A DNA stretch of 59,772 nt from Mycobacterium asiaticum. GTDB lineage: Bacteria > Actinomycetota > Actinomycetes > Mycobacteriales > Mycobacteriaceae. Each line of letters begins with the position of its first letter. Positions within the stretch are counted from its first letter, which is position 1. The stretch spans positions 1 to 59,772 of the forward strand of contig NZ_LZLQ01000012.1 in the NCBI RefSeq assembly GCF_001673315.1, given 5' to 3'. Positions 10,754 through 27,492 of the stretch are shown here, one piece after another. The notes under the pieces are model-generated. The model had not been told where the DNA came from. It saw only the letters and a program-made list of their open reading frames with translations, and made no database searches. Both the position numbers and the translations under genes were made by a program.

Positions 10754-11377
10754 CTACCCGGTGCGGTCACCTTCGTCGGCCGCACGCAGTAGATCGTCGC
10801 GGGCTCGTGCGACGCGAGACCGAACGGTGCCGATCGGGCAGCCGCTGATCTCCGCCGCCTCGGCGTAGGACAGACCCAGGATCTGGGTGAAGACCAGCGC
10901 CTCGCGGCGTTGCGGTTCCAGGCCGTCGATCAACAGACGGACCTCCACCATGTTCTCGATCCGGCTGCCGCGCCGTGCGGCCCCCACCGCGGCGTCGAGA
11001 TCGACCACGTGGGTGGTCCGGGGCCGGCTCGAGTTGTGCCGAATCTGGTCGACGACGACCCGCCGGGCAATCGACAGCAGCCAGGTGCGCGCGCTGGAAC
11101 GACCGGCGAAGCGCGGAAGGGCGCCGATCGCCCGGAGAAACGTCTCTTGAGTCAGGTCGTCGGCACTCGCCGGGTCAGCCAGGTAGGCAACCATTCGCCA
11201 CACATCGCGCTGGGTGGCCTGGATGAACTGCGTCAGCGCTACTCGGTCACCCCGGCCTGCGGACTTGGCGAGTTGGGTAATTTGGTCGTCGTCGTCACCT
11301 GTCGCCACGGTTGTAGAGAGTAGGCCATGACCGCCCTCGGCGGACGGGGAACTAATAAGCGGGCTGTAACGACTCAT
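10754..11377 (-). CDS. sigC: ECF sigma factor, SigC-like
   Basis: An extracytoplasmic-function sigma factor. Region 2 contains QRDVWRMVAYLADPASADDLTQETFLRAI, and region 4 contains LGLSYAEAAEISGCPIGTVRSRVARARDDLL. The closest family member I recognise is mycobacterial SigC, which shares SADDLTQETFLRAIGA, RSSARTWLL and the SRPRTT linker. The longest start is ATG 11377 (207 residues). GTG at 11306-11308 would give an N-terminus matching that of SigC more closely, and I cannot decide between them. It is divergent from ctpA across 51 bp. No SnoaL-like domain is present. It is inferred to recognise the shared ECF promoters listed below. Confidence 0.75.
   Translation of the reverse strand: MSRYSPLISSPSAEGGHGLLSTTVATGDDDDQITQLAKSAGRGDRVALTQFIQATQRDVWRMVAYLADPASADDLTQETFLRAIGALPRFAGRSSARTWLLSIARRVVVDQIRHNSSRPRTTHVVDLDAAVGAARRGSRIENMVEVRLLIDGLEPQRREALVFTQILGLSYAEAAEISGCPIGTVRSRVARARDDLLRAADEGDRTG
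11347..11375 (+). promoter_or_regulatory. ECF-type promoter of ctpA
   Basis: The -35 element GGGAAC is at 11347-11352, followed by a 17-bp spacer and the -10 element CGACTC at 11370-11375. The expected start of transcription is about 45 bp before the ctpA ATG. The same arrangement occurs at three other places in the window. It overlaps the proposed N-terminus of the sigma factor gene on the other strand. Confidence 0.7.
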
Positions 11378-11428
11378 CTGTAGAACGTTCAGCGGGGTTG
11401 GAGGAGACAGCATGTCGGCGGTGGGGCA

Positions 11429-13708
11429 ATGGTGACGGCGGTAACCGAAGCGCAGCCCGGGCGTCCGCAGCTGATACAACTCGAGATCACCGGCATGTCC
11501 TGCGTTGCCTGCGCGCACAAGGTGAAATCGACGCTCAACAAGCTGCCCGGCGTTCGGGCCTCCGTCAATTTCGCCACCCGGGTCGCCACGATCGAGGCCG
11601 GCGAGGGCACCACGGCCGCCGAACTGTGCGACGCGGTGCGACGAGCGGGTTACCAGGCCGAGCCGCGCCGGGCCGGCAGCGACCAAGCGGGCGATCCGGA
11701 CGCCGATCATGCCCGCTACCTGTTCACCCGGTTGGCGGTAGCCGCGGTGTTCTTCGTGCCGTTGGCGCACTTCTCGGTGATGTTCGCGGTGATGCCGGGG
11801 TCGCGTTTCACCGGCTGGGCGTGGCTGCTCACCGTGCTGGCCCTGCCGGTGGTGGGGTGGGCGGCATGGCCGTTTCACCGCGTTGCACTGCGCAACGCCA
11901 TGCACGGCGGCGCATCGATGGAGACTTTGATATCGGTCGGTATCACCGCCGCCACCATCTGGTCGCTGCACACCGCTTTCGGCGCACCCCCGTCGACCGA
12001 CCGCAGGGGCGTATGGCAAGCATTGCTTGGCAGCGATGCGATTTACTTCGAAGTCGCCGCGGGTGTCACGGTATTCGTCCTGGCAGGGCGGTATTTCGAA
12101 GCCCGCGCGAAGTCCAAGGCCGGTAGCGCGCTGCGAGCCCTGGCCGCGCTGAGCGCCAAGAACGTCGCGGTCCTGGGGGCCGACGGGTCTGAAACGGTGA
12201 TCCCGGCCGACGAACTGAAGGAGCAGCAGCGCTTCGTCGTGCGTCCGGGTCAGACGATCGCCGCGGATGGCCTCGTCGTCGAAGGCTCCGCCGCGGTGGA
12301 CATGAGCGCGATGACCGGCGAGGCAAAACCGGTCCGGGTCGATCCCGGTTCGAACGTCATCGGCGGTACTGCGGTACTCGACGGCAGGCTGATCGTCGAG
12401 GCGGCCGCGGTCGGTGCGGACACCCAGTTCGCCGGCATGGTGCGGTTGGTGGAGCAGGCGCAGGCACAGCGGGCCGACGCCCAGCGACTCGCGGACCGGA
12501 TCGCTTCGGTGTTCGTTCCGTGCGTCTTCGGTGTGGCGGCGCTCACCGCGCTGGGATGGCTGGCCGCCGGCGGTGGCGCTGACCGGGCGTTCTCAGCTGC
12601 GTTGGCCGTGCTCGTCATCGCCTGCCCGTGTGCGCTGGGGCTGGCGACCCCGACCGCGATGATGGTCGCGTCCGGCCGCGGCGCCCAACTCGGCATCTTC
12701 CTCAAAGGCCATCAATCGTTGGAGGCCACCCGTGCGGTCGACACAGTCGTGTTCGACAAGACCGGCACCCTGACGACGGGTCAGTTGACCGTCAGTTCCG
12801 TTACCGCTGCGCGTGGCTGGACCGCCGATGAGGTTCTCGACTTGGCGGCCACCGTGGAGGCAGCTTCCGAACACGCTGTCGGACTTGCGATCGTCGCGGC
12901 GTCCGCGCCGCGACGTGCGGTCGCTGACTTCCGTGCCGTGCCCGGCCGCGGCGTCGTCGGCACCGTATCCGGCCGGTCCGTGCGGGTCGGTAAGCCGTCC
13001 TGGATCAATTCCCAAGAGTCCGCGTTGGCCGCGGCACGACGCGACGCCGAATACCGCGGCGATACAGCGGTTTTCGTCGAGGTCGACAGCCAGGCGTGCG
13101 GAGTTGTCGCGGTCGGAGACACGGTGAAGGAGTCGGCGGCAGACGCGGTCGCCGCCCTGCACGGACGCGGCCTCCGCACGGTGCTGCTCACCGGCGACAA
13201 CCCGGCGACGGCGGCCGCGGTGGCTGCGAGCGTCGGGATCGACGAGGTGATCGCCGACATCCTGCCCGAAGGCAAGGTCGACGTCATCGAGCAGCTGCGG
13301 GAACACGGGCGTGTGGTTGCCATGGTGGGCGACGGTATTAACGACGGACCGGCGCTGGCTTGCGCCGACCTCGGCATGGCCATCGGACGCGGTACTGACG
13401 TGGCGATCGGCGCCGCCGACATCATCCTGGTGCGGGACGATCTCGAAGTCGTGCCGCTGGCGCTGGACCTCGCCGCCGCAACGATGCGCACCATCAAGAT
13501 CAATATGGCTTGGGCGTTCGGTTACAACGTTGCGGCGATCCCGATCGCCGCCGCGGGGCTGCTCAACCCTCTTATCGCCGGTGCCGCGATGGCGTTCTCG
13601 TCGTTCTTCGTCGTCTCGAACAGCTTGCGACTGCGCAACTTCGGTGGCGACCGGAGCGCTGCGGTGGCGTCCAGCTATGCGGCCGAACCATCCGTCGGCC
13701 ACAAATGA
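11429..13708 (+). CDS. ctpA: Copper-type P1B ATPase CtpA
   Basis: A 759-residue heavy-metal P-type ATPase. It has an N-terminal HMA domain with GMSCVACAHK (Cys25, Cys28), membrane helices, the transmembrane CPC metal site at residues 399-401, the phosphorylated Asp443 in DKTGT, and the hinge MVGDGINDGPAL. It ends with the AFSSFFVVSNSLRLRNF segment shared with CtpB. The CPC site plus C-terminal Asn/Met-type residues indicate a Cu(I)/Ag(I)-class pump of the inner membrane. Sequence and neighbours match M. tuberculosis Rv0092. It has its own ECF-type promoter and faces a sigma factor. It overlaps the convergent anti-sigma-like gene by 34 bp. Confidence 0.93.
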   Translation: MVTAVTEAQPGRPQLIQLEITGMSCVACAHKVKSTLNKLPGVRASVNFATRVATIEAGEGTTAAELCDAVRRAGYQAEPRRAGSDQAGDPDADHARYLFTRLAVAAVFFVPLAHFSVMFAVMPGSRFTGWAWLLTVLALPVVGWAAWPFHRVALRNAMHGGASMETLISVGITAATIWSLHTAFGAPPSTDRRGVWQALLGSDAIYFEVAAGVTVFVLAGRYFEARAKSKAGSALRALAALSAKNVAVLGADGSETVIPADELKEQQRFVVRPGQTIAADGLVVEGSAAVDMSAMTGEAKPVRVDPGSNVIGGTAVLDGRLIVEAAAVGADTQFAGMVRLVEQAQAQRADAQRLADRIASVFVPCVFGVAALTALGWLAAGGGADRAFSAALAVLVIACPCALGLATPTAMMVASGRGAQLGIFLKGHQSLEATRAVDTVVFDKTGTLTTGQLTVSSVTAARGWTADEVLDLAATVEAASEHAVGLAIVAASAPRRAVADFRAVPGRGVVGTVSGRSVRVGKPSWINSQESALAAARRDAEYRGDTAVFVEVDSQACGVVAVGDTVKESAADAVAALHGRGLRTVLLTGDNPATAAAVAASVGIDEVIADILPEGKVDVIEQLREHGRVVAMVGDGINDGPALACADLGMAIGRGTDVAIGAADIILVRDDLEVVPLALDLAAATMRTIKINMAWAFGYNVAAIPIAAAGLLNPLIAGAAMAFSSFFVVSNSLRLRNFGGDRSAAVASSYAAEPSVGHK

Positions 13709-27414: not shown

Positions 27415-27464
27415 CTCCTTCGCGGCCTGCCGACCGGGCCCAATCTACTGAGCGTCTGCGCAGT

Positions 27465-27492
27465 TAGTCGCTGGACGGTCGGAAAAGTTCCG
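27465..27492 (-). promoter_or_regulatory. ECF-type promoter of mmpL
   Basis: Read on the minus strand, CGGAAC (27492-27487) is followed by a 16-bp spacer and CGACTA (27470-27465), about 50 bp before the mmpL start. The spacer begins TTTTCCG, close to that of the PPE1 promoter. Confidence 0.65.

What the first reader, a model, noticed from the sequence alone, without database searches (positions are those of the whole stretch)
11347..27492. One ECF-type promoter shared by ctpA, the anti-sigma-like gene, the PPE1-nrp operon and mmpL
Four sites have the form (G/C)GGAAC-N16/17-CGACT(A/C): 11347-11375 (ctpA), 14418-14390 minus (zf-HC2 gene), 15295-15323 (PPE1-nrp) and 27492-27465 minus (mmpL). Three have exactly GGGAAC with a 17-bp spacer and each sits at a proper distance before a start codon. 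A SigC-like ECF sigma factor is encoded beside ctpA. Control of copper transport and nrp genes by SigC has been reported in M. tuberculosis. The -10 seen here (CGACT) differs from the published SigC consensus (CGTSSS), so the specificity may be new or the sigma factor a different one.
Basis: partly seen in the sequence, partly recalled or inferred. Interest (0 to 1): 0.95.

Follow-up and report, generated by a model that had tools for sequence, protein, structure and literature searches.

The report
SigC copper-starvation promoter with built-in brake
In a Mycobacterium close to M. asiaticum, nearly the same two-part promoter-like sequence stands before a predicted copper-pump gene, a predicted copper-scavenger gene cluster, a transporter gene and the gene of a predicted sigma-factor brake, so one sigma factor, SigC, likely switches them on together and would limit itself by making its own brake.

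Summary
All four sites are where stated; three are exact (GGGAAC-N17-CGACTM), the mmpL one is weaker (CGGAAC-N16-CGACTA). The genome has 11 exact matches, 3 of them within 4 kb here (P about 3e-8). The motif is tied to SigC: 1.96 hits per genome in 75 genomes with SigC against 0.35 in 43 without (p 4e-12); the backwards control shows no significant difference. Before the zf-HC2 gene the motif is exact in 49 of 71 relatives, 44 at the same distance. This is most likely the SigC promoter already reported before ctpB and ppe1, not a new specificity. The zf-HC2 gene is the putative anti-SigC RscA: 75 of 75 SigC genomes have one, and 32 carry both domains in one open frame. What looks new: (1) the brake gene has a SigC-type, predicted leaderless promoter, hence feedback; (2) two SigC lineages exist, the window's unlike M. 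tuberculosis SigC, and M. leprae keeps the anti-sigma of one and the sigma of the other; (3) the motif precedes eccA3 of ESX-3 in 25 of 67 genomes with SigC and 1 of 32 without. No expression data were available.

The parts
10754..11308 (-). sigC, lineage A (ECF sigma factor); open frame reaches 11377 and beyond, likely start GTG 11308
   Evidence: Sigma70_r2 and r4_2; NCBIfam SigC equivalog NF007231 237.9 bits, cut-off 219; PDB 2o7g match from residue 24 of the longer frame
11347..11375 (+). SigC-type promoter of ctpA, GGGAAC-N17-CGACTC
   Evidence: motif within 300 nt before ctpA in 40 of 57 named loci, backwards control 0
11429..13708 (+). ctpA, copper-type P-type ATPase with HMA domain
   Evidence: Pfam; TIGR01511 over cut-off
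13675..14382 (-). zf-HC2 membrane protein, putative anti-SigC (RscA, Rv0093c type)
   Evidence: zf-HC2 over cut-off; H29-x3-C33-x2-C36 in 12 of 12 aligned; 75 of 75 SigC genomes have a homologue
14390..14418 (-). SigC-type promoter of the anti-sigma gene, GGGAAC-N17-CGACTA, 7 nt before the ATG (predicted leaderless)
   Evidence: 49 of 71 named non-B loci; 11-row alignment with invariant GGAAC and GCGAC
14437..15246 (-). LCM-family methyltransferase-like gene between the two promoters
   Evidence: PF04072
15295..15323 (+). SigC-type promoter of PPE1-nrp, GGGAAC-N17-CGACTA
   Evidence: before PPE1 of the nrp operon in 12 of 15 named loci, the 3 misses being the M. leprae group
15406..16821 (+). 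PPE1-type gene
   Evidence: PF00823
17013..17948 (+). TauD-type dioxygenase of the isonitrile lipopeptide cluster
   Evidence: PF02668
17834..18508 (+). FcoT thioesterase
   Evidence: PF10862
18536..20101 (+). fadD10-type adenylating enzyme
   Evidence: PF00501; gene name by cluster position, recalled
20300..24463 (+). nrp, nonribosomal peptide synthetase with reductase end
   Evidence: AMP-binding, PP-binding, thioester reductase
24523..27414 (-). mmpL transporter
   Evidence: PF03176, TIGR00833
27465..27492 (-). weaker SigC-type site of mmpL, CGGAAC-N16-CGACTA
   Evidence: two M. asiaticum genomes have GTAAC-N16-CGACTA
27502..28152 (-). DUF5134 membrane protein, conserved cluster member
   Evidence: PF17197; near zf and CtaG in many relatives
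28211..30187 (+). CtaG-type membrane protein (Rv0102 type by cluster position, recalled)
   Evidence: PF09678
30487..32745 (-). ctpB-like copper ATPase, no SigC-type site seen in this window
   Evidence: upstream sequence; no hit there

Best explanation
The four sites share the form of the SigC promoter, through which the SigC-type sigma factor encoded beside ctpA likely switches on a copper-starvation set: a predicted copper ATPase, the predicted PPE1-nrp copper-scavenger operon, an MmpL transporter and its own putative anti-sigma factor RscA. Shown: the sites, their fixed spacing, their conservation, and the tie between motif and SigC across genomes. Inferred: SigC binds the sites; the zf-HC2 protein holds SigC at the membrane and, being made from a SigC-type, predicted leaderless promoter, closes a negative feedback loop; lack of copper, perhaps sensed near the conserved His118 outside the membrane, would free SigC. 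The same motif in front of eccA3 and of further PPE genes suggests that the set also includes ESX-3 secretion in a good part of the species.
For: Motif GGAACW-N16-CGACTA in the same 118 genomes: SigC+ (75) 147 hits, mean 1.96; SigC- (43) 15 hits, mean 0.35; Mann-Whitney p 4e-12; backwards control 3.53 against 2.91, p 0.08. Before the zf gene 49 of 71 named non-B loci have exact GGAAC-N17-CGACT, 44 of them at the same distance; information in 56 non-redundant loci: -35 0.89, -10 0.99, spacer 0.47, upstream 0.25 bits per column. Motif before ctpA in 40 of 57 and before PPE1 of the nrp operon in 12 of 15 named loci, backwards control 0 of 57 for ctpA. The four exact GGGAAC-N17-CGACTA sites of the own genome (two here, one before eccA3, one between cobK and a PPE gene) recur at the same places in two M. 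asiaticum genomes, G007 and G108, in 8 of 8 cases. SigC and zf co-occur 75 of 75 against 2 of 43; 32 of 75 have both in one open frame. mmpL also lies behind a site (after an HMA-domain frame) in M. genavense and behind ctpA in M. intermedium. Literature passages: SigC drives ctpB and ppe1-nrp (PMC7924339); nrp, fadD10 and ppe1 needed in low copper (PMC9600254).
Against: No transcript or binding data. 22 of 71 loci lack the exact zf site: 8 have near forms and 14 nothing similar, among them a Mycolicibacterium group in which ctpA or DUF5134, not zf, carry the site. 17 of 57 ctpA loci have no site and DUF5134 has one in only 6 of 47. 9 of 75 SigC+ genomes have no hit and 13 of 43 SigC- have at least one. 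The ctpB-like gene here has no site. The mmpL -35 is not kept in M. asiaticum. P-values are not corrected for relatedness. Anti-sigma binding is untested; the only PDB match of the zf profile is weak (RsiW, E 0.054). PMC10449499 (passage) mentions a sigma-factor-independent route to chalkophore expression.
Confidence: 0.8

Rival explanations
1. Another ECF sigma factor, such as SigM, uses these promoters, and the SigC gene nearby is incidental.
For: A passage of PMC7924339 notes that SigM overexpression raised rv0098-rv0100.
Against: SigM is in 111 of 118 genomes, 42 of the 43 SigC- genomes among them, yet the motif is rare there; of the 6 SigC+ genomes without a SigM match, 5 have the motif (G076 4 hits, G103 2, G003, G075 and G089 1 each; G115 none). 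Other ECF factors were not tested one by one.
Confidence: 0.07
2. The motif is a chance or composition effect of a GC-rich genome.
For: Six of the eleven exact own-genome matches are of unknown role, and the N16 form is as common as in shuffles.
Against: Clustering P 3e-8; fixed position with diverged spacers across species; dependence on SigC.
Confidence: 0.04
3. SigC uses the sites, but the zf-HC2 protein is not its anti-sigma factor; it is another copper-regulon membrane protein or acts on a different sigma factor.
For: In the window sigC and rscA are not one operon; PMC7924339 says no anti-SigC had been identified.
Against: Co-occurrence 75 of 75, one open frame in 32 genomes, invariant HX3CX2C; PMC6917791 calls rscA the putative anti-SigC.
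Confidence: 0.09

Closest known systems
SigC copper-acquisition regulon of M. tuberculosis (ctpB, ppe1-nrp; PMC7924339)
   Same: Same operon, copper genes and sigma family; the paper's passage reports near-identical promoter elements before ctpB and ppe1 in BCG
   Different: Window SigC is a different lineage beside ctpA, not beside cobK; sites found at ctpA, rscA and mmpL, none at the ctpB-like gene
Putative anti-SigC RscA (Rv0093c) and the sigC-Rv0093c fusion reported in the M. avium complex (PMC6917791, PMC7563442)
   Same: Same zf-HC2 protein (by name, gene position and fusion), same pairing
   Different: Here its own SigC-type, predicted leaderless promoter is found, giving a feedback loop; the B lineage has none (0 of 8 loci)
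ZAS-type (zf-HC2) membrane anti-sigma factors such as RsiW
   Same: N-terminal zinc motif HX3CX2C followed by hydrophobic segments
   Different: Several hydrophobic stretches after about residue 85; no PDB likeness beyond a weak match of the zinc domain

Membership tests
SigC (ECF sigma factor) | NCBIfam SigC equivalog model over cut-off | tested here: met
   NF007231 237.9 bits against 219; a fused B-lineage protein scores 360.9
SigC (ECF sigma factor) | Same lineage as M. tuberculosis SigC (PDB 2o7g, 2o8x), gene beside cobK | tested here: not met
   PDB scores 137.6 and 72.3 for the window against 183.8 and 115.3 for a B-lineage protein; A/B split SH-aLRT 100; in this genome a PPE gene follows cobK
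SigC (ECF sigma factor) | Regions 2 and 4 only | tested here: met
   Sigma70_r2 and Sigma70_r4_2
SigC promoter | Transcription by SigC holoenzyme | not testable with these tools
   No expression data; the support is co-occurrence
SigC promoter | Same -35/-10 as the BCG ctpB and ppe1 promoters (Rodrigue 2007) | tested here: inconclusive
   That paper is not held; only its description in PMC7924339 was read
ZAS anti-sigma factor (RscA) | HX3CX2C zinc motif and zf-HC2 match | tested here: met
ZAS anti-sigma factor (RscA) | Genetic link to one sigma factor | tested here: met
   75 of 75 co-occurrence; one open frame in 32 of 75
ZAS anti-sigma factor (RscA) | Binds and inhibits SigC | not testable with these tools
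   needs an interaction assay

The most novel reading that the evidence does not exclude
Mycobacteria carry two SigC lineages, each with its own membrane brake: A (beside ctpA, brake gene separate and made from a SigC promoter) and B (beside cobK, brake often fused to the sigma factor). In M. leprae and M. lepromatosis, and by gene position in M. tuberculosis, the B sigma factor stands without its brake while the A sigma factor is lost, so SigC now answers to the other lineage's brake. [quoted passage not shown]
Probability: 0.4. Interest if true: 0.8.

Novelty: new variant of a known kind. Interest (0 to 1): 0.62.

Why it matters
How copper starvation is sensed in mycobacteria, and what restrains SigC, is named as open in PMC7924339 (passage). 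A conserved SigC-type promoter on the putative anti-SigC gene, its natural fusion to SigC, and the M. leprae genome that keeps one member of each lineage make that question testable. A SigC-type site before eccA3 would join copper to iron and zinc as inputs to ESX-3.

Tried and rejected
New -10 specificity: rejected, since the same -10 recurs at these genes across SigC genomes. SigM as the user: rejected. A cysteine-rich small protein after the ESX-3-side site (G000 C81): the frame starts MC.C in two genomes but diverges afterwards, so not claimed. Deciding by open frames which own-genome sites are inside genes: uninformative, as the promoters here also lie in long open frames. A structure prediction of the natural fusion, the search for homologous proteins and a scan of metagenomes were not run. 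The first eccA3 count (24 of 67) missed G038, whose locus is cut by a contig end; corrected to 25. Two of the 101 genomes with an eccA3 match (G048, G059, partial matches) were left out of that count; 99 were used, and the second copies of five genomes were counted with the first.
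Full report
What is in the window. The window lies in a Mycobacterium genome of 5.43 Mb whose nearest named relatives are three M. asiaticum records (zf protein 83-84% identical; a fourth record under that name has 69%). It holds sigC, ctpA, a zf-HC2 gene, PPE1 and the nrp operon with TauD, FcoT, FadD10-type and Nrp proteins, an mmpL, DUF5134, CtaG and a ctpB-like ATPase.

The four sites are real. Eleven exact matches occur in the genome and three lie here; the backwards pattern gives two. 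Against the rate of the other eight, three within 3,977 bp has P 3e-8. The mmpL site is weaker: its spacer form is as common as in shuffles, and two M. asiaticum genomes keep the -10 but not the -35. Yet mmpL follows ctpA in M. intermedium and follows a site and an HMA-domain frame in M. genavense, so its place in the set is plausible.

Conservation. In the 80 named loci found with the zf alignment (the best 80 of 146 are kept by the tool), one is too short and 8 are of the B type; of the other 71, 49 have exact GGAAC-N17-CGACT within 45 nt of the zf start, 44 of them at the same distance. Of the 22 others, 8 have near forms (M. leprae, M. lepromatosis and M. uberis decayed; two Rhodococcus with CGACCA; L105, L135, L138) and 14 nothing similar. 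In 56 non-redundant loci, misses included, the hexamers carry 0.89 and 0.99 bits per column, the spacer 0.47 and the DNA before 0.25. A hand-picked 11-row sample that includes Rhodococcus has invariant GGAAC and GCGAC. Within 300 nt before the match the motif is found at ctpA in 40 of 57 named loci (one more cut off), at PPE1 of the nrp operon in 12 of 15 (the misses are M. leprae, M. lepromatosis, M. uberis) and at DUF5134 in 6 of 47; the backwards control gives none at ctpA or DUF5134. The -10 ends 7 nt before the zf start codon, so a leaderless mRNA is predicted.

Tie to SigC. In 118 genomes of the genus, 75 have a SigC match at E 1e-20. GGAACW-N16-CGACTA occurs 147 times in these 75 and 15 times in the other 43 (means 1.96 and 0.35, p 4e-12); the backwards control does not differ significantly (3.53 and 2.91, p 0.08). 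Nine SigC+ genomes have no hit; 13 SigC- genomes have at least one. SigM is in 111 of 118 genomes and cannot explain this. Genomes are related, so the p-values are too small by an unknown factor.

The brake. The zf protein is in 75 of 75 SigC+ and 2 of 43 SigC- genomes. In 32 genomes the two matches lie in one open frame of the same length (counted by eye). PMC7563442 (passage) reports this fusion in the M. avium complex; PMC6917791 (passages) calls the gene rscA, putative anti-SigC, far from sigC in M. tuberculosis, with one gene between in M. marinum. So the pairing itself is in print. PMC7924339 (abstract and passages) says no anti-SigC had been identified and that copper sensing is open. 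I saw no report of a SigC promoter on rscA in the passages read or in the listings.

Two lineages. M. tuberculosis SigC (PDB 2o7g, 2o8x) scores 184 and 115 bits with a fused-type SigC and 138 and 72 with the window's. Rows were labelled A or B by which of two queries scored better; in a quick tree of 87 SigC rows A (68) and B (19) fall on two sides of one branch with SH-aLRT 100, and 103 zf rows split likewise with 82, below the 95 mark. In the loci read, A genes lie by ctpA and B genes by cobK (cobK named by NCBIfam); PMC7924339 mentions cobK beside M. tuberculosis sigC. G057 has both. M. leprae has an open A-type rscA frame, a decayed A-type sigC and an open, unfused B-type SigC; M. lepromatosis is alike, while M. 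uberis still has an A-type sigC match without stops. M. simiae and M. genavense have the A-type brake, motif promoters and only a fused SigC. That SigC now answers to the other lineage's brake is inference. M. tuberculosis itself was not among the loci read.

Beyond copper genes. In the own genome the other two exact GGGAAC-N17-CGACTA sites stand between a methyltransferase gene and eccA3 (C81) and between cobK and a PPE gene (C86); both recur in two M. asiaticum genomes. The secretion locus is ESX-3: the next gene, eccB, scores 693 bits with EccB3 of the PDB against 314 with EccB5 in the own genome, and 705 against 318 in G001; EccA by NCBIfam (G001). In 99 of 101 genomes with a match to that EccA, the motif lies within 900 nt upstream in 25 of 67 SigC+ and 1 of 32 SigC- (Fisher 1.6e-4), so 42 SigC+ genomes lack it. 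The pattern there allows N16-17 and any last base. The backwards control hit 1 of 99 genomes and the antisense strand 1 of 99. In G001 two sites about 1.6 kb apart precede a PPE gene and eccA3. ESX-3 regulators named in the passages of PMC10961391 are Zur and IdeR, with CmtR acting on Zur; no SigC link was seen, but only 15 of 49 papers were listed, two of them with all three terms (PMC10956863, PMC5057432) were not opened, and subscription journals are mostly not held.

Mechanism. Shown: sites, spacing, conservation, co-occurrence, fusion. Inferred: SigC transcribes from the sites; RscA holds SigC; low copper frees it; more RscA then damps the response. The protein has several hydrophobic stretches and a nearly invariant His118 between the first two; a copper-sensing loop there is a guess. 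PMC9600254 (passages) reports that nrp, fadD10 and ppe1 are needed in low copper, which fits.

Other literature seen, passages only: PMC9147137 (ctpB induced by chelation, SigC directs ctpB); PMC4821874 (RscA not mentioned); PMC10449499 (a sigma-factor-independent route to the chalkophore, which limits a SigC-only view); PMC10468300, PMC3296574 and PMC4181829 (nothing on this promoter). Rodrigue 2007 and Sun 2004 were not read; what is said of them comes from PMC7924339 or is recalled.

Noticed in passing
L167:8772-8800 (G000 C81), outside the window: Exact SigC-type site between a methyltransferase gene and eccA3 of ESX-3, followed by stretches resembling Zur and IdeR boxes (box likeness recalled, not tested).
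   Followed up: yes
L168:7047-7075 (G000 C86), outside the window: Exact SigC-type site between cobK and a PPE gene, at the chromosomal place where other species have the B-lineage sigC.
   Followed up: partly
L145 (M. leprae) 10001-10708 and 13222-13731: Open A-type rscA frame beside a decayed A-type sigC, while the B-type SigC (L201) is open and unfused.
   Followed up: partly
L200 (G083): Two sigC-like and two short zf-HC2 matches in divergent pairs within 3 kb, with SigC-type sites before PPE-like genes.
   Followed up: no
L208:6812-7138 (M. genavense): SigC-type site, then a short HMA-domain frame, then mmpL: a possible small copper chaperone in the set.
   Followed up: no
L147, L148 (Rhodococcus) and L154 (Gordonia): The zf, sigC, copper ATPase, CtaG and DUF5134 cluster with SigC-type sites occurs outside Mycobacterium.
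   Followed up: partly
window 32600-32800: The ctpB-like gene likely starts at GTG 32745 and lacks the site that its homologue has in M. simiae (L098:18419).
   Followed up: partly
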